Origin: Streptomyces sp. R41
GTDB lineage: Bacteria; Actinomycetota; Actinomycetes; Streptomycetales; Streptomycetaceae
Assembly: GCF_041053055.1 (NCBI RefSeq)
Contig: NZ_CP163443.1
Location: 5,749,001 to 5,813,000, forward strand
Direction: 5' to 3'
Length of the DNA: 64,000 nt
The notes under the pieces were generated by a model, which was not told where the DNA came from, did no database searches, and saw nothing but the letters and a program-made list of their open reading frames with translations. The position numbers and the translations under genes were made by a program. Numbering within the stretch: the stretch's first letter is position 1; every line of letters begins with the position of its first letter. This document shows positions 23,996 through 48,955 of this stretch, piece by piece.

Positions 23996-24039
23996 CTGTA
24001 ATGCGTAGGTTGTGGGTTTGAATGCCGAAGGCAACTCCA
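23996..24039 (+). repeat. Degenerate second tRNA-Thr 3' half
   Basis: Aligns with the 44-bp tRNA half 180 bases upstream: it shares TAATGCGTAGGT and the T-arm frame, but has changes such as GGGTTTGAATGCC. The same relic occurs at 39484-39527. It looks like an older, decayed attachment site carried inside the repeat. Confidence 0.6.
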
Positions 24040-24406
24040 AGGTGAATCCCGGGCCAGGCCTACGAGCTGGGGTCTTCCCTTTCGGGTGGCCATGGAGTTC
24101 CGGCAAAGTGGGCACGCGTGCCCTGTGATGGCGGCAGGTGATCAGGGTGCTGTGCGGCCCTTGGATCACGGGGCTGCCGCCCGACCGGGGTGCGGGAGAA
24201 ACGGCCCGTACAGGAAACGGCCCGAAGGGACACTCGGGGTGTGCGTGGACGCCTTGTGGGCGCGGTAGCTGTGCTGGACCGAGGAGACGGTTCTTCTGGG
24301 GCCTGTCCGTGGTCGTGATCAGCGGGCCTGCAGGAGGCTGCTGACCCAGAGGGTTCGTTCGCGGGAGGCGGAGTTTGGCGAGGTAGCTCGCGGACGTTTC
24401 GTCGTA

Positions 24407-25035: not shown

Positions 25036-25127
25036 TCACCGTCCGCACCCTGCGCCTGACACCCGCCGACCTCGTACGGCTCCGCACGGAAGCCGATCTG
25101 GCGCTGGCGGATATCCGCACCGAAGCA

Positions 25128-25475
25128 TGTGGGACCTCCCCGTCGGCAAGAGCGAACCCGGTGAGCCCATTACCGAGACCGCCGTGCGCGAGCTATACGA
25201 AGAGACCGGCCTGACAGTGCAACCGGAGGCCCTGAAGATCGCCCACATCATCCACGGGGCGTGGGGCGTCGAAGCGCCCAATGGCTTCCTCACCGTTGTC
25301 TTCGCTGCCCACGAGTGGACTGGTGAGCCCGAAAACCCGCGAGCTGCGCAAGCACGCCCAGGTCTGCTGGATCGACACCAGCGTCATCCCCGCGGAATTC
25401 GTCGGTACGACCGAAAGCGCCCTCCACCACTACTTGGTCGACGGACCACAAGTGTCGTTGGACGGATGGCGGAGC
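25128..25475 (+). pseudogene. Truncated, frameshifted Nudix hydrolase
   Basis: A full Nudix box is present (GKSEPGE ... AVRELYEETGL) in one frame. The continuation HAQVCWIDTSVIPAEF to VSLDGW is in another, so there is a frameshift near 25335. The N-terminal strands before WDLPVGK are missing, the frame being joined to the HsdR fragment. In intact form it would hydrolyse a nucleoside diphosphate derivative; this copy should be inactive. Confidence 0.75.
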
Positions 25476-25609
25476 ACAACGAGGAGTTCAGCAGGGGGAG
25501 GCTCGGAGCCCCTCACCCTGCCGAGCGAAGCTCACCAACAGCAAAGCATAGGTAGTTGGTGCCCGAGGCGTGGGTGCCCGCCTGGAGCTACCCAGGAGTC
25601 GACCCGCGC

Positions 25610-26836
25610 TCAGGATCTCGTCGAACTCGCCACCAGCCGAGGCGACGTAGCCAGCGAGGCCAAGTAGACGATCGCGGCGAAGCCGGCGCTCACGGCGACC
25701 AAGAGCAGCCAGAATTCACGGCTCACGGCTCCGTGATCGGAGGACAGAGCGGCGGCCAGGCCATTGGCGGCGGCTCCGCCTGCGGCTATGGCGGTGCCAA
25801 TGAAGCCGAAGGCCATGCCGTGCCGGTGCGCGGGCATCGAGGCGGCGATTTCGCTGTCGATCCGGGGGTCGATGAGCACCTCTCCGATGGAGAACAGCAG
25901 AACACTCGCGATCAGGCCGGGCATCGTTCCCAGGGAGGCAGCCGCGAAGCTCGTTGCCATCAGGAGGAGCGAGCCGGAGATGACAAGCGCTGAACTGCTG
26001 GTCTTGCTGAGGGACTGGTTCAGGGGTACCTGGAGCAGCACCACGGCCAGGGCATTGACGGTGAACAGCACGCCGACGAACGAGGGGTTCTGCACGCTAC
26101 CGGTGAAGATCGGCAGTGCGTACTCCAGTTGGATGTAGCAGAAGCCGAAGGCGAAGGCGCACAGCACGATCCAGGAGAGATTCCGGTAGTCAATGGGAGC
26201 TCGTGCGGTTGCGGGGTCCCCTGTTGCCGTGCCCCTCGTGTTTGTCGGTTGGTCGGTTGCCAGCAGGGGACGCAGACGCAGAAGGACGACGGCCAGCACC
26301 ACGAAGAGGGCGCTGGTGATCAGGAAGCCGATCCGGGCGTCGGCGAGGAACAGCAGGAGGCTGCCTGCCAAGGGGCCGAGGGCGTTGCCTGCGTTGTTCG
26401 CCGTACTGCGGAGGGCGAACACGGTCCTGAGCTGTTCGCCGGCGCCCAGGAGCCGTACCAGTGCCGATTTCGAGGCCGGAACGTAGATTGCGCCGCCGAA
26501 CCCGAGGAGGGCACAGGCGCAGATGACAGTTGCGGATCCGGAGACCGTGAGCAGCAGCAGGTAGGACAGAGCTCTGACGAGCAGACCGGTGCATACGGCA
26601 GTCGCGGCGCCGGCGCGGTCGGCGATCCAACCGCCGAGCATGGTCAGGCCCTGCTGGGACCAGAACTTCACCGTGATGGCGAGGGCCACGACGACCGGGC
26701 TGAGGTGCTCTTCCCGGGTGAGGAAGACGGCGAGGTAGGGAAGCACGATGTTGCTGCCGAAGGCGACGGCGAAGTTGCCGATCAGCAGGAGCAGACAGCC
26801 CGGCGTACGCCTGGCAAGGCGCAGCGTCTCGATCAT
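25610..26836 (-). CDS. MFS transporter, probable exporter of the cluster product (408 aa)
   Basis: Twelve predicted membrane helices, with the major facilitator loop between helices 2 and 3 present as GGWIADRAGAATAV and a long central loop (about 195-220). Start ATG at 26836 overlaps the stop of the upstream ATP-grasp gene by four bases, so it is the third gene of a tight leftward operon. Export of, or resistance to, the peptide-like product is inferred from position. Confidence 0.85.
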   Translation of the reverse strand: MIETLRLARRTPGCLLLLIGNFAVAFGSNIVLPYLAVFLTREEHLSPVVVALAITVKFWSQQGLTMLGGWIADRAGAATAVCTGLLVRALSYLLLLTVSGSATVICACALLGFGGAIYVPASKSALVRLLGAGEQLRTVFALRSTANNAGNALGPLAGSLLLFLADARIGFLITSALFVVLAVVLLRLRPLLATDQPTNTRGTATGDPATARAPIDYRNLSWIVLCAFAFGFCYIQLEYALPIFTGSVQNPSFVGVLFTVNALAVVLLQVPLNQSLSKTSSSALVISGSLLLMATSFAAASLGTMPGLIASVLLFSIGEVLIDPRIDSEIAASMPAHRHGMAFGFIGTAIAAGGAAANGLAAALSSDHGAVSREFWLLLVAVSAGFAAIVYLASLATSPRLVASSTRS

Positions 26837-28083
26837 TGGCTGCCTTCGCCTTCGGGCCGGATGACGGTGGACTGCTCGAACCAGTTCAGAGCCTCACCCA
26901 ATACCGTCTCGACCTCACTGCGTGTCTCTCCGGTGGCGAGCACAGAACCCATCTTGTCCACGCTCATCCGGGCGGCCGCGAGGACCGTTCCCGGTTCGGC
27001 ATGGCGGCGGTACTCGGTGGTGCCGGCGACAGGGCATTCGGCGGGGATGTCGATCACAGTGCCTGGGCGTGGCGGGAACAGTGACCAGCCGGAGATCTGC
27101 ACCGGCAGGGCGGGGATCTGGGGCAGTTCGTTGCCGCTCAGGGCTTTGACGTAGAGCTCGGGCAGTTTGACGCCGAAGCTCAGCTCCAGAATGTGTTCGG
27201 TTCTGCCGCCCCCCATTCGGCTGGCAATCTCATTGAACACCAGCCGTCGATCGGCATCGAGAAAGATCTCGGCGTGGAACATGGAGGTGTCCGGGGTCGG
27301 CAACGCGACCAGGGCCTGGCGGGTGAGGTTCCGTATGGGCTCGAGCAGCGGGTCGGACGGGTCGAGGAGAGAGCTCTGGAGCGCACCTCCCTCCTTGAAG
27401 TCCAGGCAGGTGGTGTGGCCATGGGTCGAGGGCCACATCAACAGGGTTTCCCCGGCCACGATGATGCCGTCGACAGGGAAGAGCTCATGCTCGATGTACT
27501 TCTCGGCGAGCAGGTGGGCGCCGTCGTCGGTGCCCAAGTCGCGGTGGGCTGCGAGGAGGCTTTCGACGTCCTGCTGGCCGTGGAGGATGGCGACGTCGAT
27601 GGAGCCGCCGCCCGATCGCGGCTTGACGACGATGGGGTATCCCTGCTGGTCGATGAATTCGAGCAGGTCTGTGAGGTGGGCGACCGGTGCGTAGGGGGCC
27701 AGTGGGACTCCAGCCCTTTCCAGTATTCGCTTCATCTCCAGCTTGTCACGGAACGCGGTCGCGCTGGCGACGTCCTGTCCGGGTACGGCGAACAGTTCAC
27801 GCAGCCGGGCGGCGCGCAGGATGTCGAACTCGGAGAGTGCGATGACCCGATCGAATCCCCATTTCTGGTGAAGCGTCAGGGCTTCGTTCTCCACCAGGGG
27901 GTTGAAGTGGAAGTCGTCCATAACTTCCACGTGCGCATAGCCTGCCAATTGGGCAGAACGCACTTCCGGGTCGGACGAGACGGCGGCCGCGTCGGTCAGG
28001 AGTACGGCCTCGTGGTCGGCGCCGAGCCAGTCGGGGAAGCGGCGCCCGGTGAGCGGGGTCCGGTTGAGTACCAGGTATCTCAT
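26833..28083 (-). CDS. ATP-grasp ligase 1 (416 aa)
   Basis: ATP-grasp enzymes join a carboxylate, activated as acyl phosphate, to an amine or thiol. Visible: ATP-binding YPIVVKPRSGGGSIDV (about residues 150-165), EKYIEHELFPVDG near 190, and the metal-binding LVFNEIASRMGGG near 290. The N-terminal preATP-grasp domain and C-terminal lid are full length. It overlaps both neighbours by four bases. With the second ATP-grasp gene it suggests two condensation steps, for instance a tripeptide or an amide-capped dipeptide. Confidence 0.88.
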   Translation of the reverse strand: MRYLVLNRTPLTGRRFPDWLGADHEAVLLTDAAAVSSDPEVRSAQLAGYAHVEVMDDFHFNPLVENEALTLHQKWGFDRVIALSEFDILRAARLRELFAVPGQDVASATAFRDKLEMKRILERAGVPLAPYAPVAHLTDLLEFIDQQGYPIVVKPRSGGGSIDVAILHGQQDVESLLAAHRDLGTDDGAHLLAEKYIEHELFPVDGIIVAGETLLMWPSTHGHTTCLDFKEGGALQSSLLDPSDPLLEPIRNLTRQALVALPTPDTSMFHAEIFLDADRRLVFNEIASRMGGGRTEHILELSFGVKLPELYVKALSGNELPQIPALPVQISGWSLFPPRPGTVIDIPAECPVAGTTEYRRHAEPGTVLAAARMSVDKMGSVLATGETRSEVETVLGEALNWFEQSTVIRPEGEGSQ

Positions 28084-29342
28084 CGGACCTCCACGTTGAT
28101 GGCGTCGCGGAACTCGCCGAATGCCGCGTCCACGGCTTCGGGGGTGGCGGCGGAGAAAACGACATGCCCGTGGGCCGCCGAGGCGTGCGGAGGAACGAGA
28201 ACCTGATCACCGGGCTGTCCGTACAGCATGATTTCGCTGACCCGGCTGTCGGTCTCAACCGTCTCCAGGCCCGCTACGCCGACCAGTTCACCGGCCCGCT
28301 CGGCGAAGAAGAGGTAAAAGCCGGTGGGAGTGGGCGCGTTCGGCACGTCGAGCTGCGGCTCGCGGCCGGTCGCGACGTCGAGCAGGGCGTCGACCATGTC
28401 GATACCCGTGCTCAGAAGGACGGACTGGTAGACGGGTCCGCCGCCCAGGCGTGCGGCCGTTTCGAGGATGTACGGTTCATCGTCCGCGGTGATGCGGAAT
28501 TCGGTGTGGGTGGCGCCGGTGCTGATACCGAGCGCGTCATGGGCGGCTTCGACGGCCGTGGTGATGCGCTCGACCAGTTCCGCGGAAAGCCGGGTCGGCG
28601 TCGTGTAGTAGACCTCTTCGAAGAAGGGCCCTTCCATCGGGAGCGGCTTGTCATGGATGGCCACGACCCGGGTCCCGCCGTCGACGACGATCGATTCGAC
28701 GCTGATCTCGGAACCGGGGACGTACGCCTCCAGGAGCACCGCCTCGTTGTACTGCTCCCGGGTGCGGGTGTGCAGCGGGTCGTGGGCGAAGCCGGTCCAG
28801 GCGCCCTTCTGAATGGGCCCGAAGTGCTCGGCCAGCTCCGCGGCGTCGTTCACCCGGCGTACGTACTTGCTGCCGCCGCCGATCAACGGCTTGAGGACCA
28901 GGGGATATCCGAGCTTGTCCGCGCCCTCGACGGCCTCCTCCAGGTTTGCGGCAAGGTGGAATCCCGGCTGCAGAAGGCCGGCCCGGCCGAATGCGGAGCG
29001 CATCGCGTATTTGTCGCGAGCGAGATAGGCGGCCTTTTCCTCGAGGGATGGGAGACCCAGCTCCGCCGCCACGGCGGCTACTGCCGGGACGCTCTGCTCG
29101 ACGAAAGTCACCACGCCGCGTACGGGTTCGTCCTCGGTGGCGATCAGAGCGCGAACCGCGGCCACGGTCTCTTCGATGCTGGTTGTATCCGCCGATACGA
29201 CACGATCGACGTAGGAACTCTCCCAGGTGGCGTCCTTCATGACCATCAAAAGGCGGTCGCCGTGTTCCCGGGCGTAATCCCGCACCCGAGCTAGGTGATT
29301 GCGGCGACTGAGATTCCTCGTGTGCAGCAGCAGAATACTCAC
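28080..29342 (-). CDS. ATP-grasp ligase 2 (420 aa)
   Basis: The ATP-binding part reads YPLVLKPLIGGGSKYV (about residues 140-155), with a following EAYVPGSEISVESIVV and a metal-binding ILETAARLGGG near 300. It is related to, but clearly distinct from, ATP-grasp 1 downstream. I take the GTG at 29342 (MSILLLHTRN) as start. A GTG 33 bases upstream is in frame but adds residues unlike the family N-terminus. First gene of the leftward operon, divergent from the NeuB operon, so both halves probably share regulation. Confidence 0.86.
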   Translation of the reverse strand: MSILLLHTRNLSRRNHLARVRDYAREHGDRLLMVMKDATWESSYVDRVVSADTTSIEETVAAVRALIATEDEPVRGVVTFVEQSVPAVAAVAAELGLPSLEEKAAYLARDKYAMRSAFGRAGLLQPGFHLAANLEEAVEGADKLGYPLVLKPLIGGGSKYVRRVNDAAELAEHFGPIQKGAWTGFAHDPLHTRTREQYNEAVLLEAYVPGSEISVESIVVDGGTRVVAIHDKPLPMEGPFFEEVYYTTPTRLSAELVERITTAVEAAHDALGISTGATHTEFRITADDEPYILETAARLGGGPVYQSVLLSTGIDMVDALLDVATGREPQLDVPNAPTPTGFYLFFAERAGELVGVAGLETVETDSRVSEIMLYGQPGDQVLVPPHASAAHGHVVFSAATPEAVDAAFGEFRDAINVEVR

Positions 29343-29500
29343 AGATCCATGTCTCTCAATTAGTCGAAGTGTCACGCCGCACCTAAGAGCGGCGGAAGGG
29401 GCTTCCGTTACCTCGGTAGCCGATCGCGTTCAATTCGGACATGCATCATCATTCATGACAACTAAGCACACAGCTGGGCTAGTTGGAAGAAGGCAATGCG

Positions 29501-29521
29501 TGTCAACATGATCAGATCATG
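29501..29521. promoter_or_regulatory. Candidate operator/promoter between the divergent biosynthetic operons
   Basis: A perfect 15-bp palindrome (CATGATC-A-GATCATG) at 29507-29521 abuts TGTCAA (29501-29506), which on the minus strand is a consensus TTGACA -35 for the ATP-grasp operon. The matching -10 is weak (CTAGCC). A factor on the palindrome could control both directions. The whole 29343-29615 leader is AT-richer than the genes. Confidence 0.4.
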
Positions 29522-29615
29522 CTACCGTTCGGTCGGTCAATCACCCGGGGGGCGAGATATGCATTATGTCCCGTTGATCTCCCGGGGTAATGTACATGTA
29601 AGGGAAAATCGACCC

Positions 29616-30665
29616 ATGCCCCGCAATATCACTATCGGTGAGAACCAAATTACCGACAGTGCAGATGCTTATGTCATCGCCGAGATCGGACACAATCACG
29701 GCGGTGATGTAGAGAAGGCGGCCGAACTCATCCGTATGGCCGCGGAATCCGGCGCAAGCGCCGCGAAGCTTCAGAAGCGCGACAACAAGGCCCTGTTCAC
29801 CAAGGCTATGTACAACGAGCCCTACACGGGTCGGAACAGCTTCGGTCCGACGTATGGCGCGCACCGCGAAGCGGTGGAGTTCGGGTTCGACGAGTACCGG
29901 CAACTCGCCGAGCTTTCACGCGAGTTGGGCATCGATTTCTTCTCGACTGCCTTTGATTTCCCGAGTGTTGACTTCCTCGCGGAACTCGGTGTTCCGGCCA
30001 TCAAGATTGCCTCTGGTGATCTGACCAATACGCCCCTGCTCGCCCACGCGGCCAAGACGGGTATTCCCCTCATCGTGAGTACCGGTGGCGCGGACATGGA
30101 AGAGGTCCGCAGGGCCGTCGACACCATCGCGCCGCTCAACTACCAGCTCGCGCTGCTGCAGTGCACTGCGGCGTACCCCGCCACCCCCGACGTACTGAAC
30201 CTCTCGGTGATCAACACCTATCGCGAGGAGTTCCCGGACGTGGTGGTCGGCCTGTCGGGCCACGACGTCGAGACCGAGTCGAGTGTGATCGCCTACACGC
30301 TGGGTGCCCGCGTGATCGAGAAGCACGTCACCATGGACCGCACCCTGCCGGGCAGCGACCACCACTTCTCGCTGGAGGCGAACCACCTGCGCGAGCTGGT
30401 GGACAGCCTCGAGCGGACCCGCCGTTCCCTGGGCAGTCCCGAGAAGCGTCAGCTTCCCGTCGAGGCCCCGGCCCTGCGCAAGATGGCGAAGAAGCTTGTC
30501 GCCGCCCGCGACTTGAGCGCCGGGCAGGTCCTGACCGTCGAGGACATCGCCATCAAGTCCCCTGGGGACGGCCTGCGTCCGTACCTCCTCGACGAGGTGA
30601 TCGGCCGCCCGCTGCTGGCGCCGCTGGTCGCCGACGACGCCATACAGTTCGACAACCTCGGCTGA
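29616..30665 (+). CDS. NeuB/SpsE-like ulosonic acid synthase (349 aa)
   Basis: Condenses PEP with an aldose to give a 3-deoxy-2-ulosonic acid. Typical blocks: AEIGHNHGGDVEKA, KLQKRDNKALFT, DFFSTAFDFPSVDFL, IKIASGDLTNTPLL, LLQCTAAYPA, GLSGHD and EKHVTMDRTLPGSDHHFSL, with a C-terminal SAF domain (about 285-349, LVAARDLSAGQVLTVEDI). The ATG at 29616 (MPRNITIGE) follows TAAGGGAAAA; longer in-frame versions add nothing family-like. It opens the rightward operon. No CMP-transferase or epimerase of sialic-acid pathways is nearby, so the product is probably not a surface sialic acid. Confidence 0.9.
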   Translation: MPRNITIGENQITDSADAYVIAEIGHNHGGDVEKAAELIRMAAESGASAAKLQKRDNKALFTKAMYNEPYTGRNSFGPTYGAHREAVEFGFDEYRQLAELSRELGIDFFSTAFDFPSVDFLAELGVPAIKIASGDLTNTPLLAHAAKTGIPLIVSTGGADMEEVRRAVDTIAPLNYQLALLQCTAAYPATPDVLNLSVINTYREEFPDVVVGLSGHDVETESSVIAYTLGARVIEKHVTMDRTLPGSDHHFSLEANHLRELVDSLERTRRSLGSPEKRQLPVEAPALRKMAKKLVAARDLSAGQVLTVEDIAIKSPGDGLRPYLLDEVIGRPLLAPLVADDAIQFDNLG

Positions 30666-30672
30666 GCGCCTC

Positions 30673-31482
30673 GTGAGTACGCAGATCGACCTCAGCGGGC
30701 AGGTCGCGGTGGTGACGGGCGTGCTGGGCCGCCTTGGTGGGATTTGGACGGACGCCCTCCTCGGCGCGGGCGCCGTCGTGGTGGGTGTCGACCGCACCAC
30801 GGCGATTCCGCAGGGGTTCGGGGAGCTGCTCGCCCGTCATCCTGCCGACCGCTTCCGCCTCCTCGAAGCCGATGTAACGGACGCGGAGAGCCTTCGCCGG
30901 GCCCTGGAGATGTGCCTGGCTGAGGCGGGCTCCCCGACGGTTCTCGTCAACAACGCGGGGATCGACCAGCCGCCGAGTGCGACGGGCGGCAGTTGGCTCT
31001 TCGGCGACATTCCCGCCGAGGTCTCCGACGCTGTTTTGAACGTCAACGCCCTTGGCGTACTGAGGGTGTGCCAAGTGTTCGGCTCGGAGATGGCCCGCAA
31101 GGGCGCCGGGTCCGTCATCAACATTGGCTCTCTGTACGGCAGCATGGCGCCGGATCCGCGCCTGTACGAACATCTGCCGCAGGACCCCCCGTTCCTCAAG
31201 CCGCCGGCCTACGGCATGTCCAAGGCGGGCGTCGCTGCTCTCACCCGGTATCTCGCCGCGTTGTGGGGCCCGCAGGGCGTACGCGTCAACACGCTTTCCC
31301 CGGGCGGGGTGCTGGGAGGTCAGGACCAGCTCTTCCGCGGCAAGTTCAGCGATCGTGTCCCGCTGCGCCGCATGGCCGAGGCCACGGATCTGACCGGGCC
31401 CCTGCTCTTCCTCGCCTCCGACATGAGCAGCTATGTGACCGGCACCGAGCTGCTGGTGGACGGCGGCTACGTCTGCTGGTGA
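30673..31482 (+). CDS. Short-chain dehydrogenase/reductase (269 aa)
   Basis: Classical SDR. The nucleotide-binding GVLGRLGG deviates slightly from TGxxxGxG; NNAG and the Ser/YGMSK (YxxxK) active site are present, and it ends with the usual TGTELLVDGGY. It resembles the PtmA-type SDRs that accompany NeuB homologues in surface-glycan loci. It starts with GTG at 30673, seven bases after the synthase stop. The likely job is oxidation or reduction of a sugar hydroxyl or keto group in the NeuB product or its precursor. Confidence 0.88.
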   Translation: MSTQIDLSGQVAVVTGVLGRLGGIWTDALLGAGAVVVGVDRTTAIPQGFGELLARHPADRFRLLEADVTDAESLRRALEMCLAEAGSPTVLVNNAGIDQPPSATGGSWLFGDIPAEVSDAVLNVNALGVLRVCQVFGSEMARKGAGSVINIGSLYGSMAPDPRLYEHLPQDPPFLKPPAYGMSKAGVAALTRYLAALWGPQGVRVNTLSPGGVLGGQDQLFRGKFSDRVPLRRMAEATDLTGPLLFLASDMSSYVTGTELLVDGGYVCW

Positions 31483-31514
31483 GCCGGTCCGCCGCCCGTA
31501 CTTCTGGAGAAGTC

Positions 31515-33428
31515 ATGAACATCTCTCTCGCCTGGCTGTCCGCTGCCGAGTTCACGCGCATCCTGGACGGCATCGACGATCCGTACGACCGCAGTCGTGC
31601 CTTCGCGGACGCGTCCCGGATCAACACCCTGTACAGCATCATGCGCGCCGGATCCGGGCACCTCGGATCCAGTTTCAGCGCGGCCGACGCGGTCGCCTGG
31701 CTGCTGCTCCATGAGATGCGCTCGCCCTTCGAGCCGGACGGAGACATCTACTTCTCCTCCAAGGGGCATGATGCTCCGGGCCTGTACGCGTCCCTGACGG
31801 GGCTCGGCGCGCTGCCCGAGGACAAGCTGCACCAGCTCCGCAGGCTGGGCGGTCTGCCGGGCCACCCCGATGTGAGCATCCCGCACATGCACGCCAACAC
31901 CGGATCCCTCGGTATGGGGATCTCCCGGGCCAAGGGCATGATCCTCGCCGACCGGCTGGCCGGAGTGAGCCGTCGCATCTTCGTCCTGACCGGCGACGGA
32001 GAGTTGCAGGAAGGGCAGAACTGGGAGGCGCTGGCCGGTGCGGTTCACCATTCCATGGGTGAACTGACCGTCATCGTCGACCACAACAAGATCCAGTCCG
32101 ACACCTGGGTCGCCGATGTGAGCGACCTGGGTGACCTGGAGGCGAAGTTCCGCTCCTTCGGCTGGGGTGTGCTGCGCTGCGACGGCAACTCGGCGCAGGA
32201 GCTGGACACCGCGTTCCGGCTTCGGCAGAAGGAACACTCCGGGGTGCCCGCCGTCATCATCGCCGACACGGTGAAGGGGGCCGGCGCCGCCACCTTCGCG
32301 GCCACGTCGATGCCCGAGGGGGAGTGGCGCTACCGCTTCCACAGCGGAGCCCCGGCGGTGGAGGACTACCGCAGCGCCCACCAGGAACTGCTCACCTCGC
32401 TGAACGCGGTGCTCGCCCGACACGGTCTCGCTCCGGCCGAACTGTCCGTGGCCGACGTCACCCTGCCGGTCAAGGCGATGGGCCCCCAGCTTCCGCAGGT
32501 CTACGGCCGTGCCCTGGTGGAGCGCGCTCTCGCCGACGAGCGGATCGTGGCCCTGGACGCGGACCTGGTGCTCGACACCGGTCTGATCCCGTTCTCCGAG
32601 ACGCTGCCGCAGCGCTTCTTCGAGTGCGGCATCGCGGAACAGGACATGGTGTCGATGGCCGGCGGTCTGGCCTCACGCGACTTGCTGCCCTTCGTACACT
32701 CGTTCTCCTGCTTCCTGCATGCCCGGCCGAACGAGCAGATGTACACCAACGCGTCGGAGCACCGGAAGATCGTCTATGTGGGCTCGCTCGCAGGTCTGAT
32801 CCCGGCCGCGCCCGGCCATTCCCACCAGGCCGTACGCGATGTCAGCGCGTTGGGCGCGATCCCAGGGCTCGTCGTACTGGAGCCGGCCAACTCGGCCGAG
32901 ACCGAGGCGGCGCTCGACTTCTGCATCGCTTCCGAGTCGAGCACCTACCTCCGACTCGTCAGCACCCCGGTCTCCGCAGAGGCCGAGGCGCTCGGCGCCG
33001 AGCCGCTGACGCTCGGCCGAGGCCGCGTCGTGCGCGCCGGCGGCAGGGCGGTGGCGATCGGATCCGGTCCCATCGTGCTCACCCAACTGGTCAGGGCCGC
33101 CGAGCTGTTGGCGGCACAAGGCATCGAACTGACCGTTGTCGACCTGCCCTGGCTGAACCGCGTCGACTCCGCCTGGCTCGCGGACCTGACCGCCGAAGCC
33201 GACGAGCTCTTCGTCGTCGAGAACCACTACACCCACGGTGGCCAGGCGGACCTGATCGCCCGAGCCCTGCTGGAGCGCGGGGACCACAGGGTTCCCGCCT
33301 TCACCGGAATCGGTCTGACCGAGGTGCCGAAGTGCGGCACCGAGGCGGAAGTCCTCGATGCCCACGGGCTGAGTGCCGAACGGCTCGCCGCGCGGTTCCG
33401 GGCCCGGATCCGCCCGAGCGAGCACTGA
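31515..33428 (+). CDS. Transketolase, single-chain (637 aa)
   Basis: Complete thiamine-diphosphate enzyme: N-terminal GHLGSSFSAADAV, GSLGMGISRAKG, the TPP/Mg motif GDGELQEGQNWE to DHNK, then the pyrimidine domain with the conserved Glu (ECGIAEQDMVSMA) and the C-terminal domain. Primary-metabolism transketolase is about 660-700 aa; this one is closer to pathway-dedicated forms. It moves a two-carbon ketol unit between sugars. The ATG at 31515 has CTGGAGAAG upstream. In this operon it probably builds or trims a carbon skeleton before or after the NeuB step. Confidence 0.92.
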   Translation: MNISLAWLSAAEFTRILDGIDDPYDRSRAFADASRINTLYSIMRAGSGHLGSSFSAADAVAWLLLHEMRSPFEPDGDIYFSSKGHDAPGLYASLTGLGALPEDKLHQLRRLGGLPGHPDVSIPHMHANTGSLGMGISRAKGMILADRLAGVSRRIFVLTGDGELQEGQNWEALAGAVHHSMGELTVIVDHNKIQSDTWVADVSDLGDLEAKFRSFGWGVLRCDGNSAQELDTAFRLRQKEHSGVPAVIIADTVKGAGAATFAATSMPEGEWRYRFHSGAPAVEDYRSAHQELLTSLNAVLARHGLAPAELSVADVTLPVKAMGPQLPQVYGRALVERALADERIVALDADLVLDTGLIPFSETLPQRFFECGIAEQDMVSMAGGLASRDLLPFVHSFSCFLHARPNEQMYTNASEHRKIVYVGSLAGLIPAAPGHSHQAVRDVSALGAIPGLVVLEPANSAETEAALDFCIASESSTYLRLVSTPVSAEAEALGAEPLTLGRGRVVRAGGRAVAIGSGPIVLTQLVRAAELLAAQGIELTVVDLPWLNRVDSAWLADLTAEADELFVVENHYTHGGQADLIARALLERGDHRVPAFTGIGLTEVPKCGTEAEVLDAHGLSAERLAARFRARIRPSEH

Positions 33429-33468
33429 CCGACCGGCTAAAGCCGCCTCATCAGAACAGGAAGACCTC

Positions 33469-34143
33469 ATGGACACCATCTACAACGACCTCACCCGTCC
33501 CCCGCAGGAGATCGTCGACGGCTTCGTAGAGCTGCTCGCCGAGTACAGCCCCAGCTGTGTGGTGACCGACGGGCAGCGCCGCGCTGGCGCCATCGGCGGA
33601 TTCCAGGTCGTACGGCACGACCAGAAGGTCGCTGGCCCCGCGTTCACCATCGACCTCTCGATCGACGACTGGGTCAACACGCTGCCGATCCTGTCCCGCG
33701 CCCAGCCCGGTGACGTCATCGTCATGGCCTGCCACGGCGTGGCCACCACGGCGATGTGGGGCGGCCTCACCGCGACGGTCTCCCACAAGTTCGGCGTGGC
33801 CGGGGCGATCATCGACGGCGCCGCACGGGACATCGACGAGATCCGCGACATCGGTTTCCCCGTCTGGTACCGCACCACCTCCCCGCGGCAGTCGCCCGGT
33901 GCCGTCCACGACCGCATCGAGCCGGTCCAGGTGAACGTCCCCGTGTCGGTCGGCGGGCAGGTCATCTTCCCCGGCGACATCGTCGTGGCCGACGAGAACG
34001 GCGTGGCGACTGTGCCGTCGGCGCGGGCCAAGGACGTGCTGGAGAGCGCCCGTGAGGTGGCGCGCCGCGAGAACGAGATCCGCGACCGCATCGCCTCCGG
34101 TGCTACCGCCGCGGACCTGCGGGCCGAGTTCGGCAACCTCTGA
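33469..34143 (+). CDS. RraA-family protein, probable aldolase (224 aa)
   Basis: Has the RraA fold signatures: GDVIVMACHG, GAIIDGAARDIDEIR (the DGxxRD metal/substrate motif), FPVWYRTTSP and the end motif GDIVVADENGVATVP. Family members with these residues cleave 4-hydroxy-2-oxoacids (4-hydroxy-4-methyl-2-oxoglutarate aldolase) and can decarboxylate oxaloacetate. A 2-oxoacid substrate fits the NeuB product made by the first gene. The ATG at 33469 has ACAGGAAGA upstream. Retro-aldol versus aldol direction cannot be told. Confidence 0.82.
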   Translation: MDTIYNDLTRPPQEIVDGFVELLAEYSPSCVVTDGQRRAGAIGGFQVVRHDQKVAGPAFTIDLSIDDWVNTLPILSRAQPGDVIVMACHGVATTAMWGGLTATVSHKFGVAGAIIDGAARDIDEIRDIGFPVWYRTTSPRQSPGAVHDRIEPVQVNVPVSVGGQVIFPGDIVVADENGVATVPSARAKDVLESAREVARRENEIRDRIASGATAADLRAEFGNL

Positions 34144-34152
34144 GGAGAAACG

Positions 34153-35061
34153 ATGCGTCTCTACATCACCGGTGCGGACGGAAGCCTCGGCAAGGCCCTG
34201 ACGCAGGAACTGGGTGCCGATCCTCGCACGGCCGCCTGGACCGTCCAGGGTGTCTCCGTCCACGACTTCGACATCGCCGACGAAGCCGCGGTATCCGCTT
34301 CCATCGGCAGCTTCCGCCCCGACATCGTTCTCCACCTGGCCGCCATCTCCATCGTGGCCCCCTGCGAGACCGACCCCGCACTCGCGCTGCGCGTCAATGT
34401 CTCGGGCGTCCACCAGGTGGCCGAAGCCTGCCGCAGGGGCGGCAGCCGGATGGTCTACATCTCCAGCGACTACGTCTTCGACGGCGTCGAGGCCCCGGCG
34501 GACGGCTACGGGGAGAAAGATGTTCCCAACCCGCTGAGCGTGTACGCACTGACGAAGCTCGCCGGGGAGCAGATCACCGCGCATGTGCCGGAACACCTGG
34601 TGATCCGCACCTCGTGGCTCTTCGGCGGTGCCGCGGAGAACAACGACGACGTACTGGCCACCATCAGGGCGGCCGAGCGGGGCGAGCAGCAGGAGCTGAT
34701 CGACGATCAGTACAGCCGCCCCACCTACACGGTGGACCTGGCCCGCGCGATTATCCACCTGATCACGCGGGACGAGTTCCCGACTGGCATCGTGCACGTC
34801 GCCAACGAAGGGTGGGCGACCCGGTACGAACTCGGGGCCTACGCGCTGATGCAGTACGACCCGAAGCTCAACGCGGACCACCCGCCCACCGCGATCTCCT
34901 ACGACGACTGCGAGTTCGTCGGAGGCCGGCCTAGGACGTCCGCCTTCAGCACCGCCCGGCTGGCGCAGCTCGGACACGTCATGCCCGACTGGCAGGACGC
35001 CGTGGACCGGCACTGCGCCGTTCTGCCCCGCCCGGCTGCTCCCGAAAGGACCATCGCATGA
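34153..35061 (+). CDS. RmlD-like NAD(P)-dependent reductase (302 aa)
   Basis: Extended SDR close to dTDP-4-dehydrorhamnose reductase: ITGADGSLGKAL at the N-terminus, HLAAISIVAPCE, ISSDYVFDG and the YALTKLAGE (YxxxK) site near residue 131. No RmlA/B/C genes are present, so the substrate is probably a free or otherwise activated sugar or keto acid rather than dTDP-rhamnose. It is nine bases behind the RraA gene and overlaps the next gene by four bases. Confidence 0.85.
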   Translation: MRLYITGADGSLGKALTQELGADPRTAAWTVQGVSVHDFDIADEAAVSASIGSFRPDIVLHLAAISIVAPCETDPALALRVNVSGVHQVAEACRRGGSRMVYISSDYVFDGVEAPADGYGEKDVPNPLSVYALTKLAGEQITAHVPEHLVIRTSWLFGGAAENNDDVLATIRAAERGEQQELIDDQYSRPTYTVDLARAIIHLITRDEFPTGIVHVANEGWATRYELGAYALMQYDPKLNADHPPTAISYDDCEFVGGRPRTSAFSTARLAQLGHVMPDWQDAVDRHCAVLPRPAAPERTIA

Positions 35062-36386
35062 GACTGCGTACCGGACGCTCAGACGCCACGGCCCGGTGGC
35101 GCAACTGGGCCGGCTCGGCCCAGTGCACTCCGCACCGTCTGGTCCACGCGACCGACGAGAGCGACATCGTCGACGCCGTGCGCCATGCCGCGAGCAGCGG
35201 TCTGACGCTGCGGGCTGCGGGGACGGGGCACTCCTTCAACCCCATCGCGACCACCAGCGGTGTGCTCCTCGATCTGACGGGCTACACCGGCGTCGTCGCT
35301 CTCGACCCCGCGACGCCCTCCGTGACCGTGCGGGGCGGGACCCTGCTCAGGGAGCTCAACTGGGCCCTGGACAAGGCCGGGCTAGCACTGTCAAACATGG
35401 GCACCCTGGAGGAGCAGACCATCGCGGGTGCCATCTCCACGGGCAACCACGGCAGCGGCCTGCACCACCGTCCGTTCTCCGGCCATGTGCTGGGGCTCAC
35501 CCTGGTCACCGCGGACGGCAGCGTCCGCTCGTGCAGCCCCGAGGAGAACCCGGAGCTCTTCCAGGCCGCGGTCACCTCCCTGGGCGCGCTGGGTGTCATC
35601 TCCACCGTCACCCTGCGGTGCGTACCCAAGTTCAATCTGCGGGTGACGGAGGGCAGTCAGCCGCTGGAGAGCATCCTCGAGGACATCGAGGCGTACGCCG
35701 GCAGCGCGGAACACGCCACCTTCTCCCTCAAGGGGTGGAGCGACAACGCGTCGACGCTCAAACTCGAGCCCACCGACGCTCCCGTCTCCGCCGACGCCGC
35801 GCGCCGCCGCCGGGCCAACACCCTCGGCGAGGTGCGGTGCGCCACGGCCGGCCTGGTGGGCAGGATCGACCAGCGGGCCGTGCAGCGCATCATGACTGCG
35901 CAGTTGGGTGGCAGTTCGGGCCCGGCCGACTATGTCGACGTCAGCTACAACGCCTTCACCTTCCCGCAGCCGGTCAAGTTCCTCTCCCTGGAATACGCCC
36001 TGCCCCTGGCGAGGGCCACCGACGCGGTGCGCTACGTCCATGAGGACGTCAAGCGCTTCGGACTGCGCACCCCGTACTCGATCACCGTGCGCTTCGGCGC
36101 CGGTGATGACTACCTGCTCAGCCCGGCCCAGGGGCGTACGACGGCCTACGTGAACATCACCGTCCCGCGTACCGTCGGCTACACCGAACTCCTTCGCGTC
36201 TTCGAAGCCGCTCTGCAGGAGCACGACGGACGACCGCACTGGGGCAAGGCACACACCGCGACGGCGGAGACGGTCGCTGACCTCTACCCGGGCTGGAAGG
36301 CGTTCCAGGACATCCGGGCCGAGCTCGACCCCGACTCCATGTTCACCAGTGACTACATCAGGCGTGTGCTCGGCGGCGCGCGCTGA
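35058..36386 (+). CDS. FAD-linked oxidase of the aldonolactone oxidase family (442 aa)
   Basis: An FAD-binding type 4 domain (about 15-185) with AAGTGHSFNPIA, where the His could carry FAD, and GAISTGNHGSG, followed by an ALO domain whose end holds the RPHWGKAH motif typical of L-gulono/D-arabinono lactone and alditol oxidases. These oxidise a polyol or lactone carbon with O2. It suits oxidation of a terminal sugar alcohol or lactone in the pathway. DprE1-type epimerising oxidases are distant relatives, but the HWGK ending favours ALO. It overlaps both neighbours. Confidence 0.88.
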   Translation: MRLRTGRSDATARWRNWAGSAQCTPHRLVHATDESDIVDAVRHAASSGLTLRAAGTGHSFNPIATTSGVLLDLTGYTGVVALDPATPSVTVRGGTLLRELNWALDKAGLALSNMGTLEEQTIAGAISTGNHGSGLHHRPFSGHVLGLTLVTADGSVRSCSPEENPELFQAAVTSLGALGVISTVTLRCVPKFNLRVTEGSQPLESILEDIEAYAGSAEHATFSLKGWSDNASTLKLEPTDAPVSADAARRRRANTLGEVRCATAGLVGRIDQRAVQRIMTAQLGGSSGPADYVDVSYNAFTFPQPVKFLSLEYALPLARATDAVRYVHEDVKRFGLRTPYSITVRFGAGDDYLLSPAQGRTTAYVNITVPRTVGYTELLRVFEAALQEHDGRPHWGKAHTATAETVADLYPGWKAFQDIRAELDPDSMFTSDYIRRVLGGAR

Positions 36387-37057
36387 TGTCGACCGAGGCA
36401 CTCCTGTGGGACTTCGACGGTCTCATCTGCGACACCGAGCGGGCTGCGCACCGGTCCTGGGAGCTGCTCTACGCCCGGCACGGCCTGGTCTTCCCCGACG
36501 AGACCTGGGGAGCGATGGCAGGCCGGGCGACCGGAGAGTCGTACGCCGCACAGGACCTGGCCGAACGGCTCGGCCGGGACCTGTCCGCCGGGGAAATGGC
36601 AGAGCGACGCGGTCTGAAGGCTCGGCTCGCGGATGCCGAACCCCTGCGGCCCGGGGTGGCGCAGCTACTGGAGAGCGCCGCGCGCCGGGGGATCCGGTGC
36701 GCGGTCGTTTCCAGCTCCGACGGAGACTGGGTACGCGGTCACCTGGAGCGGCTGCAGGTGCTCGACCGGTTCGCCATGGTGGTCACGGGTGAGCAGGTCG
36801 AGGCCCGCAAACCCGCCCCTGACCTGTATCTGCGTGCTCTGGACCTGCTGGGCACCGGCCCGGACAGGGGCCTCGCGCTGGAGGACTCGCCGACCGGCGT
36901 GGCGGCGGCGAAGGCCGCTGGGCTGACCTGCGTGGCGGTACCGGGGGCGCGGGGCAGGCGAGCCGAGCTGACGGCGGCCGACCTGGTCCTCGACAGCCTG
37001 GAACAGCTGGAACGGTTCGACGTTCCAGGTAAGACAACAAAGGTGATATCCGCATGA
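36386..37057 (+). CDS. HAD-family phosphatase/phosphomutase-like protein (223 aa)
   Basis: Beta-phosphoglucomutase-like HAD: motif I DFDGLICDTE, motif II SSSDGDW, motif III Lys in EARKPAPDLY and motif IV LEDSPTGVAAA. It has a helical cap of about 70 residues. In a pathway with a NeuB-like step and transketolase it most likely removes phosphate from a sugar phosphate intermediate. Start and stop overlap the adjoining genes, marking it as part of the operon. Confidence 0.88.
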   Translation: MSTEALLWDFDGLICDTERAAHRSWELLYARHGLVFPDETWGAMAGRATGESYAAQDLAERLGRDLSAGEMAERRGLKARLADAEPLRPGVAQLLESAARRGIRCAVVSSSDGDWVRGHLERLQVLDRFAMVVTGEQVEARKPAPDLYLRALDLLGTGPDRGLALEDSPTGVAAAKAAGLTCVAVPGARGRRAELTAADLVLDSLEQLERFDVPGKTTKVISA

Positions 37058-38043
37058 CGACCGAACAAGAGCTCGACGCGACAGCCATGTCCATCATGGA
37101 CTCGCTCGTGCGAAAGGACCGGGCTCGTCCCGACTGGCTGTGGCGCAGCGGGGCACTGGTCCCCTGGGCGGACGCGAACATCCACGTCAACGCCGTCGGT
37201 CACGCGTCGGTCGCCTCGGTCTTCGAGGGGATCAAGGCATACGTGTCCCACGACGGGACCCGGCTGCTGGCCTTCCGCCTCGACGAGCACCTCAAGCGGC
37301 TGTACGAGTCGGCGCGCATCGTCCGGCTCGACATTCCGTACGGACTTGAGACCCTGCGCGCCGCCGTGATCGAGGTCATCCGTGCGAACGCCTACCGCGA
37401 GGACGTGTATCTGCGGCCCTGGGCCTTCCCGGCGGGCATCATTCAGGAGCAGATGGTGCCGGCGGGTGTCGCCTGCGAACTCGTGGTGGACAGCTGGACG
37501 TTCCAGAGCGGACTCGGCACCGAGCGCGGCTGCCGCGCGGCGGTGAGCTCCTGGACCCGTATCAACGAGTCGTCCATGCCGCCGCGGGTGAAGGCGTTCT
37601 CCAACTACCACAACGGTCGGCTCGCCATGATCGAGGCGCGGGAGAACGGCCATGACTGGCCCATCCTCCTGAATGAGCGCGGGAAAGTCAGTGAAGGGCC
37701 GGGGGCATGTATCGCCGTCGTCCGCGACGGCGTGGTCTCGACGCCTTCCACCACCAGCGGGATCCTCGAGAGCCTGACGCGCGAGACGTCGATCACCCTG
37801 CTGCGCGAGCTGGGGTACGCGGTCGTCGAGCGGGACGTCGACCGCACCGAGCTGTACCTGGCGGACGAAGTCTTCTTTATGGGCACAGGGTGGGAGATCC
37901 TGCCGGTGACCTGGGTGGACGGACTCAAGGTGGGGGAGGGAACGGCCGGTCCGGTGACCCGTGCGCTGGACGAGGCGTACGCCTCCGTGGTGCGGGGCAC
38001 GTATCCGGGGCACGCAGACTGGCTGACCGAGATTCCGTTCTGA
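37054..38043 (+). CDS. Class IV (branched-chain type) aminotransferase (329 aa)
   Basis: PLP enzyme of the IlvE/D-amino-acid transaminase fold. ASVFEGIKAYV near residue 55 and the PLP lysine in RVKAFSNYHNGRLA near 180 are clear, as is SEGPGACIAVVRDG. It aminates a 2-oxoacid. The NeuB-like enzyme makes a 2-oxoacid, so conversion of that product to an unusual polyhydroxy amino acid is a reasonable inference, and the ATP-grasp ligases would then use it. ATG at 37054 overlaps the HAD stop. Confidence 0.9.
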   Translation: MTTEQELDATAMSIMDSLVRKDRARPDWLWRSGALVPWADANIHVNAVGHASVASVFEGIKAYVSHDGTRLLAFRLDEHLKRLYESARIVRLDIPYGLETLRAAVIEVIRANAYREDVYLRPWAFPAGIIQEQMVPAGVACELVVDSWTFQSGLGTERGCRAAVSSWTRINESSMPPRVKAFSNYHNGRLAMIEARENGHDWPILLNERGKVSEGPGACIAVVRDGVVSTPSTTSGILESLTRETSITLLRELGYAVVERDVDRTELYLADEVFFMGTGWEILPVTWVDGLKVGEGTAGPVTRALDEAYASVVRGTYPGHADWLTEIPF

Positions 38044-38196
38044 TCACCCTTTGGGGTCCGGGTGCCGTTCTCACCTCATGTGCGTGCAATCGACCCCGTC
38101 CGCACGAGACGGCGCCCTGGCCCCGGCTGCCGGTAACGTCGCGCTACTGCGATGATGCTCCGGCGACGGCTGGCCAGACACGTGTAGGAGAGAGCC

Positions 38197-39027
38197 TTGA
38201 CCCTTACTGATCCTGAGATGTCGGCACTGTGGGCTGACGGAACGCCCGAGGAGGCGGCTCGTCAGCCGTCTCCCTCAAAGCTTTCGGTCGCCGATGTGCT
38301 GACGCTGGGTAACGCGGTCTGCGGATTCTCCTCCATCTACTTCATCACGACGGCCGTCCTGGTCCCGTACCTCACGGACGGCCGGGGCGATGGTTCGGTG
38401 CGGCAGGGCGCGGCCGCCGCGGTCATGCTCATCCTGATGGCCTCGCTCTTCGATCTGTGCGACGGGCTGGTCGCTCGGAGGTTCCGCAGCTCCGGGATGG
38501 GTGCGGAGCTCGACAACCTCTCGGACCTAGTCAGCTTCGGCCTCTCACCTGCGTACTTCGTGGTGGTGTGGGGACTCGTCACCGAGGATGCGCACCTGGG
38601 GCTCGTCGTTGCGGCTGCCGTCGCCGTACTGCTGGGCGGCTTGCTGCGTCTCGCGCGCTTCTCCGTCACCACGATGCAGGACGGCATGTTCCAGGGCATG
38701 CCGATCCCGTTCGCAGCGCTCACGGTCGTTTCGGTCGTTCTGCTTGAACTGCCTTTCGTGGTCACCTTGATCGCCGTGCTCGGCGTCGCCTGGCTCATGG
38801 TGAGCCGGGTCGAATACCCCAAGCCCACCGGCAAGATGGCCATCGCCACGGTGGGATGGGCAGCGGTCAACATCGCCTGCCTGGTCGCCTGGGCCGCCGA
38901 CGCCCCCGGCGGCGAGGTCCTCCTGGTGGCCGGTTGCGCGCTCCAGCTCACCCTTGCGGCAGTGCTTCCTCTGTTCGCCACGGCGCGCCGCATCAACATG
39001 GCGCGCAGCGCCCGCTCGGCCGGGTAG
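38197..39027 (+). CDS. CDP-alcohol phosphatidyltransferase, PssA-like (276 aa)
   Basis: Integral membrane enzyme with the family motif DG(x)2AR(x)8G(x)3D(x)3D, seen in DLCDGLVARRFRSSGMG and the following AELDNLSD, and about eight hydrophobic helices. Normal family members join a CDP-diacylglycerol-type donor to an alcohol such as serine or inositol phosphate. The TTG at 38197 follows AGGAGAGAG. It lies 153 bases behind the aminotransferase, so it may be an extra member of the cluster or a separate gene. If in the pathway, it could transfer a lipid or CMP-linked group to the hydroxylated product. Confidence 0.85.
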   Translation: MTLTDPEMSALWADGTPEEAARQPSPSKLSVADVLTLGNAVCGFSSIYFITTAVLVPYLTDGRGDGSVRQGAAAAVMLILMASLFDLCDGLVARRFRSSGMGAELDNLSDLVSFGLSPAYFVVVWGLVTEDAHLGLVVAAAVAVLLGGLLRLARFSVTTMQDGMFQGMPIPFAALTVVSVVLLELPFVVTLIAVLGVAWLMVSRVEYPKPTGKMAIATVGWAAVNIACLVAWAADAPGGEVLLVAGCALQLTLAAVLPLFATARRINMARSARSAG

Positions 39028-39303: not shown

Positions 39304-39347
39304 CTCGTAATGCGTAGGTCTCGGGTTCGAATCCCGAAGGCGGCTCT
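39304..39347 (+). repeat. attachment-site copy 2: 3' half of tRNA-Thr(CGT)
   Basis: Same 44 bases as at 23816 and 48124. It marks the right end of the element carrying the NeuB/ATP-grasp cluster. Immediately after it, AAGCCTCAGG (39352) pairs with CCTGAGGCTT (39377) before TTTGCTTTT, a terminator hairpin that would have ended the original tRNA transcript. Confidence 0.85.
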
Positions 39348-48925: not shown

Positions 48926-48955
48926 AGTGGTGTTCCCCCCGTCTCAGGTCCTGGC

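What the first reader, a model, noticed from the sequence alone, without database searches (positions are those of the whole stretch)
25610..39027. Unrecognised biosynthetic cluster: NeuB-like synthase, transketolase, RraA, lactone oxidase, aminotransferase and two ATP-grasp ligases
The gene set fits one route: a 3-deoxy-2-ulosonic acid is made, its skeleton and oxidation state changed, phosphate removed, the 2-oxoacid transaminated, and the amino acid ligated by two ATP-grasp steps and exported. I know no described pathway with this combination. The divergent operons are tightly overlapped and are bounded by attachment sites, so the cluster is mobile as a unit. This is my best candidate for an undescribed system.
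Basis: inference. Interest (0 to 1): 0.8.

Follow-up and report, generated by a model that had tools for sequence, protein, structure and literature searches.

The report
Mobile sugar-acid-to-peptide gene cluster
A Streptomyces genome carries, on a 15.5 kb unit parked behind a transfer-RNA gene, a rare but real gene cluster that shares the front end of a surface-sugar pathway and probably uses it to build an unusual amino acid for a small peptide; its product is unknown.

Summary
They lie between exact 44-bp copies of the tRNA-Thr(CGT) 3' half, 15,488 bp apart. NeuB-SDR-TK-RraA-RmlD-ALO-HAD-BCAT recurs in one order in eight other actinomycete genomes; in seven an ATP-grasp relative is near, in the eighth the contig ends. 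It is rare: a close TK in 7 of 392 Streptomyces genomes. The NeuB belongs to a subfamily, apart from ordinary sialic acid synthases, whose other members mostly sit with SDR, aldehyde dehydrogenase, transketolase and cytidylyltransferase. Most likely an ulosonic acid is remodelled, dephosphorylated, transaminated, ligated into a small peptide and exported; every reaction is inferred. PssA2 forms a clade apart from the housekeeping enzyme and may mark the product's target. Ten text searches of an open-access library gave no matching pathway; cluster databases were not available. No PF00589 integrase lies in the tRNA-Thr array, so mobility would need help in trans.

The parts
23816..23859 (+). 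left att-like copy: 3' half of tRNA-Thr(CGT), 44 bp
   Evidence: exact copies at 39304 and 48124; four copies in the genome, one inside the intact tRNA gene
23816..24411 (.). 596-bp left end of the unit, repeated at 39304-39898 at 99.7%
24446..25555 (+). open frame with a restriction-helicase piece (ResIII/SWI2_SNF2) followed by a NUDIX piece; probably a decayed remnant, not biosynthetic
25610..26836 (-). MFS exporter
   Evidence: PF07690; 70-71% relative next to GraspB in L137
26833..28083 (-). GraspB: ATP-grasp / L-amino acid ligase type; nearest solved chain 4wd3 (L-amino acid ligase); 33% to plasmid proteins annotated NikS
   Evidence: 61% in Actinokineospora enzanensis
28080..29375 (-). 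GraspA: ATP-grasp / L-amino acid ligase type (start 29342 in my gene caller); nearest solved chain 3vot
   Evidence: 51-66% relatives in 7 of 8 other loci with the eight-gene order
29616..30665 (+). NeuB-family PEP-condensing synthase with SAF domain, of the TK-linked subfamily
   Evidence: PF03102, PF08666; below NnaB and PseI equivalog cut-offs; tree
30673..31482 (+). short-chain dehydrogenase/reductase
   Evidence: PF13561
31515..33428 (+). transketolase, N, pyrimidine-binding and C domains
   Evidence: PF00456, PF02779, PF02780; invariant columns
33469..34143 (+). RraA/aldolase-like protein; DG..RD motif in 7 of 7 aligned
   Evidence: PF03737; alignment; meaning of the motif recalled
34153..35061 (+). 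RmlD-like NAD(P)-dependent reductase
   Evidence: PF04321; just under TIGR01214 cut-off
35058..36386 (+). ALO-type FAD oxidase (aldonolactone/alditol oxidase family)
   Evidence: PF04030, TIGR01679 over cut-off; nearest solved chain 2vfr xylitol oxidase
36386..37057 (+). HAD phosphatase, beta-phosphoglucomutase-like
   Evidence: PF13419; best NCBIfam TIGR02009, below its cut-off
37054..38043 (+). class IV aminotransferase of branched-chain type (BCAT)
   Evidence: PF01063; PRK06606 and ilvE_I over cut-off
38197..39027 (+). PssA2: second phosphatidylserine-synthase homologue of the genome
   Evidence: TIGR00473 over cut-off; 62% to own PssA1; tree; motif
39304..39347 (+). right att-like copy: 3' half of tRNA-Thr(CGT), 44 bp

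Best explanation
A horizontally spread biosynthetic cluster that shares the front half of a surface-sugar pathway and turns it to peptide synthesis. Proposed order (all inferred): NeuB condenses phosphoenolpyruvate with a sugar aldehyde, probably a sugar phosphate, to a 3-deoxy-2-ulosonic acid; SDR oxidises a hydroxyl near the far end to an alpha-hydroxy ketone; transketolase removes or transfers a two-carbon ketol, leaving an aldehyde; RraA (aldolase/decarboxylase fold) and RmlD adjust the skeleton and reduce a carbonyl; the ALO-type FAD enzyme re-oxidises a polyol or lactone position; HAD removes phosphate; BCAT aminates the 2-oxo acid to an unusual, perhaps self-cyclising, polyhydroxylated amino acid; GraspA and GraspB ligate it to ordinary amino acids; MFS exports the product; PssA2 protects the producer or modifies lipid or product. 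The cluster plus PssA2 is one unit bounded by tRNA-Thr(CGT) 3' halves and carries no PF00589 integrase. Shown: gene content, families, co-conservation, boundaries, kinship of NeuB. Inferred: every reaction and the product.
For: Eight-gene order NeuB..BCAT kept at 49-80% identity in 8 other genomes of Streptomyces, Kitasatospora, Actinokineospora, Actinomadura and Micromonospora. ATP-grasp relative of 51-66% in 7 of those 8 (the eighth contig ends). NeuBs of 17 actinomycete loci form one group (SH-aLRT 95) inside a subfamily of 64 (99); the genome's own second NeuB is outside. In the other members of the subfamily with at least 8 kb of 3' flank (n=29): SDR 27, aldehyde dehydrogenase 23, cytidylyltransferase 22, TK 19, KdsC-like HAD 18; ordinary NeuB loci (n=16): SDR 4, aldehyde dehydrogenase 0, cytidylyltransferase 12, TK 0, HAD 4. 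HADs of different Pfam types accompany the NeuB in the two contexts, which hints at a phosphorylated intermediate. PssA2 relatives share contig lengths with GraspA or GraspB relatives in five cases. G924 keeps a BCAT 3' remnant plus PssA2, 84.5% identical in DNA to window 37613-39020.
Against: No metabolite and no biochemistry. Five loci of another type lack ALO and BCAT in the stretch held, and their class III aminotransferase (one tested) passes the L-lysine 6-transaminase cut-off, so there the sugar-derived unit need not become an amino acid. The window lacks the Zn-ADH that 7, and the AKR that 6, of the 8 other eight-gene loci carry; the best Zn-ADH relative elsewhere in its genome is 47% (the AKR was not searched there). 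RraA's role is a guess. PssA2 also occurs without the cluster. A cytidylyltransferase is as frequent near ordinary NeuB (12 of 16) as in the subfamily (22 of 29), so that partner is not special to it.
Confidence: 0.55

Rival explanations
1. The unit makes a sugar acid or its conjugate, not an amino acid: BCAT acts on a partner keto acid, and the ATP-grasp enzymes attach ordinary amino acids to a carboxylate of the ulosonic or ulosaric product.
For: The subfamily's other loci mostly carry aldehyde dehydrogenase and a cytidylyltransferase (PseF-like, below cut-off, in the one tested); five actinomycete loci lack ALO and BCAT.
Against: BCAT is in all 9 loci with the eight-gene order and in the reduced Micromonospora rosaria form NeuB-SDR-TK-RraA-BCAT-ADH.
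Confidence: 0.25
2. TK acts before NeuB: TK and SDR build the rare aldose that NeuB then extends. (A variant of the route; not exclusive with the best explanation.)
For: No sugar-nucleotide epimerase or sugar aminotransferase that would supply an aldehyde was recognised in the cluster; loci with NeuB and no TK in the stretch held exist (L024, L028).
Against: None direct; gene order alone does not decide.
Confidence: 0.3
3. An ordinary surface-polysaccharide (nonulosonic acid) locus.
For: NeuB, SDR and TK are shared with such loci.
Against: None of the 12 cluster ORFs matches a cytidylyltransferase or glycosyltransferase at E <= 0.001; NeuB is below both synthase cut-offs; two L-amino-acid-ligase-type enzymes and a BCAT belong to amino-acid chemistry; the NeuBs of these loci form their own group.
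Confidence: 0.06
4. A decayed, non-functional relic on a genomic island.
For: No PF00589 integrase in the array, a broken helicase/NUDIX frame beside it, a remnant of the same unit in G924.
Against: All 12 frames are open and full length, overlaps intact, conserved motifs kept where aligned.
Confidence: 0.08

Closest known systems
NeuB/SpsE/PseI ulosonate synthases (sialic and pseudaminic acid pathways)
   Same: PF03102 plus SAF; nearest solved chains SpsE 1vli, a sialic acid synthetase 6ncs and pseudaminic acid synthase 8h2c
   Different: below both NCBI equivalog cut-offs, separate subfamily in the tree, no cytidylyltransferase among the 12 ORFs
TK-linked NeuB loci of many phyla (NeuB with HAD, SDR, aldehyde dehydrogenase, cytidylyltransferase, TK); I know no name for them
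   Same: NeuB 48-58%, SDR 38-59%, TK 41-54%
   Different: no RraA, RmlD, ALO or BCAT relative in any of 49 such loci at E <= 1e-8; many contigs are short
ATP-grasp peptide clusters (bacilysin BacD, rhizocticin RizA, nikkomycin NikS)
   Same: two L-amino-acid-ligase-type enzymes with LAL_C2 domain and an MFS; GraspB 33% to proteins annotated NikS
   Different: the genes that would make the amino acid are of another kind (from recall of those pathways)
Scleric acid cluster of S. sclerotialus (PMC6335953; search listing and six passages seen)
   Same: transketolase-type domains, an ATP-grasp enzyme and an MFS in one cluster
   Different: the words NeuB and sialic do not occur in its text; split transketolase domains load a glycolyl unit onto a carrier protein, and one NRPS module takes part
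Azinomycin/vazabitide and anisomycin (recalled), 7-deoxysedoheptulose (abstract start seen)
   Same: recalled: a transketolase moves a two-carbon unit to make an unusual metabolite
   Different: no NeuB partner known to me; no carrier-protein domain among the 12 ORFs
Housekeeping PssA of Streptomyces
   Same: TIGR00473 over cut-off, full catalytic motif
   Different: separate group in the tree, no decarboxylase gene beside it, 19 group-specific columns of 275, four of them (88, 95, 96, 100) within the motif stretch

Membership tests
NeuB-type N-acetylneuraminate / pseudaminate synthase | NeuB and SAF domains | tested here: met
NeuB-type N-acetylneuraminate / pseudaminate synthase | score over the equivalog cut-off of NnaB (399.65) or PseI (340.25) | tested here: not met
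   282.4 and 228.3 bits; so not filed as a sialic or pseudaminic acid synthase
NeuB-type N-acetylneuraminate / pseudaminate synthase | condenses PEP with ManNAc or its kin | not testable with these tools
   needs an enzyme assay
CMP-ulosonate surface sugar pathway | cytidylyltransferase in the locus | tested here: not met
   no such match among the 12 ORFs at E <= 0.001
NRPS-independent ATP-grasp peptide cluster | L-amino acid ligase(s) with ATP-grasp core and LAL_C2 | tested here: met
   for GraspB, LAL_C2 and CPSase_L_D2 pass, ATP-grasp and ATP-grasp_4 stay below their curated cut-offs
NRPS-independent ATP-grasp peptide cluster | a peptide product | not testable with these tools
   needs metabolite analysis
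tRNA-integrated genomic island | direct repeats of a tRNA 3' end bounding the unit | tested here: met
tRNA-integrated genomic island | integrase on the element | tested here: not met
   0 of 15 PF00589 matches in the genome lie between 5741433 and 5797167; serine recombinases were not searched for
tRNA-integrated genomic island | empty site in a relative | tested here: inconclusive
   the right flank is itself a biosynthetic cluster, not core: 5 of 30 other genomes have a kin of its ketosynthase, at 53-62%; not pursued further
CDP-diacylglycerol-serine phosphatidyltransferase (PssA) | TIGR00473 over cut-off and D..DG..AR...G...D...D motif | tested here: met
   114.6 against 107 bits; motif positions shared at 95% or more by 27 PssA2 and 92 PssA1 rows; activity itself not testable

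The most novel reading that the evidence does not exclude
A new biosynthetic logic: the NeuB-SDR-transketolase front end of an undescribed surface-sugar pathway has been captured on mobile units and turned, through RraA, RmlD, ALO, HAD and BCAT, into a route to a polyhydroxylated amino acid; the ATP-grasp peptide made from it inhibits phosphatidylserine synthase, and PssA2 is the self-resistant target copy carried on the same unit.
Probability: 0.15. Interest if true: 0.85.

Novelty: new variant of a known kind. Interest (0 to 1): 0.6.

Why it matters
If the route is as proposed, it adds a way to make non-proteinogenic amino acids from phosphoenolpyruvate and sugars, shows secondary metabolism sharing a surface-sugar pathway, and gives genome miners an eight-gene signature. 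The wider loci with NeuB, SDR, aldehyde dehydrogenase, TK and cytidylyltransferase point to a bacterial sugar pathway for which I found no description. A target-copy reading of PssA2 would be directly testable and would point at membrane lipid synthesis as an antibiotic target.

Tried and rejected
Rejected: an ordinary sialic-acid or polysaccharide locus (no cytidylyltransferase or glycosyltransferase match, NeuB below cut-offs). Chance grouping (order kept in eight other genomes). PssA as an unrelated neighbour (shared contig lengths, remnant in G924, own group in the tree), although PssA2 also stands alone in other genomes. Naming the product: none of the pathways that I could recall fits. 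Ten text searches returned nothing or papers whose titles and abstract starts concern other things; of one, the scleric acid paper, I read six passages, and it has no NeuB. Naming the FAD enzyme an alditol oxidase: the nearest solved chain is one, but parts of the aligned sequence look closer to gulonolactone oxidases as I remember them, so I left it at family level. Empty-site test: flank not core. Far-side att copy in the Kitasatospora relatives: not found in the fetched stretches. The promoter/terminator scan was at chance level. Not used: structure prediction and fold search, viral contigs.

The set of 49 includes two loci (L052, L077) with none of the partner genes and several on short contigs. 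In one search I gave 56 of 126 PssA rows, 119 of 126 (six unplaced or odd rows and the G924 row left out). One search kept the best 80 of 562 relatives, itself a capped list.
Full report
WHAT IS THERE. Between 25610 and 39027 lie twelve intact genes. On the minus strand: MFS, GraspB, GraspA, each overlapping the next by 4 bp. On the plus strand: NeuB, SDR, transketolase (TK), RraA-like, RmlD-like, ALO-type FAD oxidase, HAD phosphatase, branched-chain-type aminotransferase (BCAT), then after 153 bp a PssA homologue.

BOUNDARIES. A 44-bp sequence equal to the 3' half of tRNA-Thr(CGT) stands at 23816, 39304 and 48124. The whole genome has these three and a fourth, one mismatch away, inside the intact tRNA-Thr gene at 5741401-5741476, all on one strand. 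This is the usual picture of elements stacked behind one tRNA gene: unit 1 about 31 kb (with type I restriction-modification and DndB-like genes), unit 2 of 15,488 bp (this cluster with PssA), unit 3 of 8.8 kb. Units 2 and 3 share their first 596 bp at 99.7%. None of 15 PF00589 integrase matches in the genome falls inside the array, so the unit looks stranded; other recombinase families were not searched for. G140 has two copies with a phage-integrase gene between them, the nearer one about 0.26 kb from GraspA; G014 has the intact tRNA gene and one copy, about 3.5 kb from GraspA. No copy was found on the far side within the stretches fetched (to 3431800 in G140 and 493800 in G014), so these clusters are next to the repeats, not bracketed by them.

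HOW OFTEN AND WITH WHOM. A TK relative at E <= 1e-100 occurs in 6 of 297 Streptomycetaceae, 7 of 392 Streptomyces and 3 of 396 Actinomycetota genomes; the window's own genome is counted in each, and the samples overlap. I opened eight of the other genomes with a TK of 63-70%. All eight have NeuB-SDR-TK-RraA-RmlD, then HAD, in one order; five (G080, G044, G146, G140, G014) also have ALO and BCAT. A further one, G697, was not opened by handle, but its coordinates match the NBC_01237 plasmid (L009), which was. G466, with a TK of 44-46%, has none of the other genes in its 20 kb. From the 80 loci kept of 562 NeuB relatives (capped list), nine are of this actinomycete type; two of those (L022, L025) have the contig lengths of G014 and G146. 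Of the other seven, Actinokineospora enzanensis, Actinomadura hibisca and Micromonospora sp. KC606 have the full eight-gene order, S. zaomyceticus has the form without ALO and BCAT, Micromonospora rosaria has NeuB-SDR-TK-RraA-BCAT-ADH beside NRPS genes, and two (L024, L028) have NeuB without TK in the stretch held. So nine genomes, the window included, share the eight-gene order. A. enzanensis also has GraspA (66%) and GraspB (61%) in the same order and orientation, divergent from NeuB; a third ATP-grasp gene (32% to GraspA) and two MFS genes follow. GraspA relatives of 51-66% are in seven of the eight others; the contig of the eighth (G146) ends first. A relative of GraspB above 60% was seen in none of the eight but A. 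enzanensis; G080, G044, G140, G014 and KC606 have a different second ATP-grasp (25-33%).

VARIANTS. Zn-ADH occurs in seven and AKR in six of the eight other eight-gene loci; neither was found in the 64 kb window or the 21 kb held of A. enzanensis. A second form (NBC_01237 plasmid, G811, G947, G1013, S. zaomyceticus: five loci) has NeuB-SDR-TK-RraA-RmlD-HAD plus a class III aminotransferase, a glyoxalase-fold dioxygenase, an FMN dehydrogenase, a further PLP enzyme and a methyltransferase; I read the first three of these as hydroxyphenylglycine genes from memory, no model said so. In NBC_01237 a two-module NRPS follows. The class III aminotransferase of NBC_01237 passes the NCBI cut-off for L-lysine 6-transaminase (569 against 521 bits), so I do not take it as a sign that the NeuB product is aminated there.

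KINSHIP OF THE FRONT END. In a tree of 87 NeuBs, 17 from the actinomycete loci (L024 and L028 included) form one group (SH-aLRT 95), inside a subfamily of 64 (99) that excludes 23 ordinary NeuBs, the genome's own second copy among them (quick method, no bootstrap). Among 49 other loci of the subfamily, the 29 with at least 8 kb of 3' flank have SDR 27, aldehyde dehydrogenase 23, cytidylyltransferase 22, TK 19 and KdsC-like HAD 18; RraA, RmlD, ALO and BCAT are in none of 49 (a GraspA-like hit of 27% is in one). Of 16 ordinary NeuB loci with that flank, TK and aldehyde dehydrogenase are in none, SDR in 4, HAD in 4 and a cytidylyltransferase in 12. In the one tested the cytidylyltransferase is PseF-like, below cut-off; in the two loci inspected, glycosyltransferase, Wzz or sugar-nucleotide genes are nearby. 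So NeuB, SDR and TK travel together in many phyla, probably to make a CMP-activated ulosonic acid; the actinomycete clusters share that front end and continue differently. Which came first the tree does not say.

PssA2. The genome's other copy, PssA1, sits beside a gene that I read as phosphatidylserine decarboxylase (sequence; no model was run). PssA2 is 62% identical to PssA1 and belongs to a separate group of 28 rows (96/97) in a 56-row tree, with the full catalytic motif and 19 group-specific columns of 275. PssA2 relatives appear on contigs of the same length as GraspA or GraspB relatives in five cases (68481, 142263, 380516, 517450, 179801; equal length is a proxy, not proof). In Streptomyces G924 only the last 138 or so residues of a BCAT (93%) and a PssA2 (88-90%) remain, followed by a weak tRNA-Thr-like stretch (35 nt, 83%, E 0.001), between a tRNA-Lys gene and a 48-bp copy of its 3' end. 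At E <= 1e-103, 107 of 392 Streptomyces genomes have a PssA match; five besides the own one have it at 68-88%, the rest listed at 59-66%. Of those five, G924 has the BCAT remnant and four show no core gene of the cluster in the stretch fetched. PssA2 is thus cargo of this unit but not tied to it. That it is a self-resistant target copy is my inference.

MECHANISM. The chemistry is given under Best explanation. Two points lean on evidence: HAD phosphatases of different types here and in the polysaccharide-like loci hint at a phosphorylated intermediate, and the ATP-grasp enzymes are of the L-amino-acid-ligase type (nearest solved chains 3vot for GraspA, 4wd3 for GraspB), which suggests peptide bonds to amino acids. 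The direction of the TK step, what RraA does and what the FAD enzyme oxidises are open.

NOVELTY. Ten searches of a 5.39-million-paper open-access library found no paper on such a combination; the nearest listing, scleric acid, has no NeuB (passages). Subscription papers and cluster databases were not searched. Hence 'new variant of a known kind' (an ATP-grasp peptide cluster with a front end that I found nowhere described), interest 0.6.

Noticed in passing
L035, L036, L037, L042, L043, L045, L046, L048-L051, L055, L057, L060, L061, L064: Loci in many phyla with a NeuB of this subfamily plus SDR, aldehyde dehydrogenase, cytidylyltransferase and transketolase: look like an undescribed CMP-ulosonic (perhaps ulosaric) acid pathway.
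   Followed up: partly
window 38197-39027; L160-L164: Accessory PssA group of Streptomyces, separate from the housekeeping enzyme, found with and without the cluster.
   Followed up: partly
L160:14227-15922 and L167:6667-6714 (G924): Scar of the same unit: BCAT 3' end, PssA2 and a weak tRNA-Thr-like end, inside a tRNA-Lys-bounded stretch.
   Followed up: partly
L009:3252-25437, L023, L114, L115, L116: Relatives that combine NeuB-SDR-TK-RraA-RmlD-HAD with a lysine-6-transaminase-type enzyme and hydroxyphenylglycine-like genes; an NRPS was seen in L009.
   Followed up: partly
L018:5175-6587, L024:5872-8540, L027:6674-9375, L016:15727-17049, L017:15513-16841: A family of about 450 residues, in two copies in L024 and L027, beside MFS and ATP-grasp genes in relatives; no Pfam or NCBIfam match for the two members tested.
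   Followed up: no
window 4832-15512: The first unit behind tRNA-Thr carries DndB-like and type I restriction-modification genes, a defence island.
   Followed up: no
window 48326-63102: Another biosynthetic cluster right of the array: two ketosynthases, a formyltransferase with ACT domain, a one-module NRPS with thioesterase, MFS.
   Followed up: no
window 45744-47819: TPR protein whose gene holds tandem copies with a 96-bp period at 47104-47783.
   Followed up: no
L011:13748-16582 (G080): Methylaspartate (glutamate) mutase E subunit with a small neighbouring frame, plus a second Zn-ADH relative, beside the cluster.
   Followed up: no
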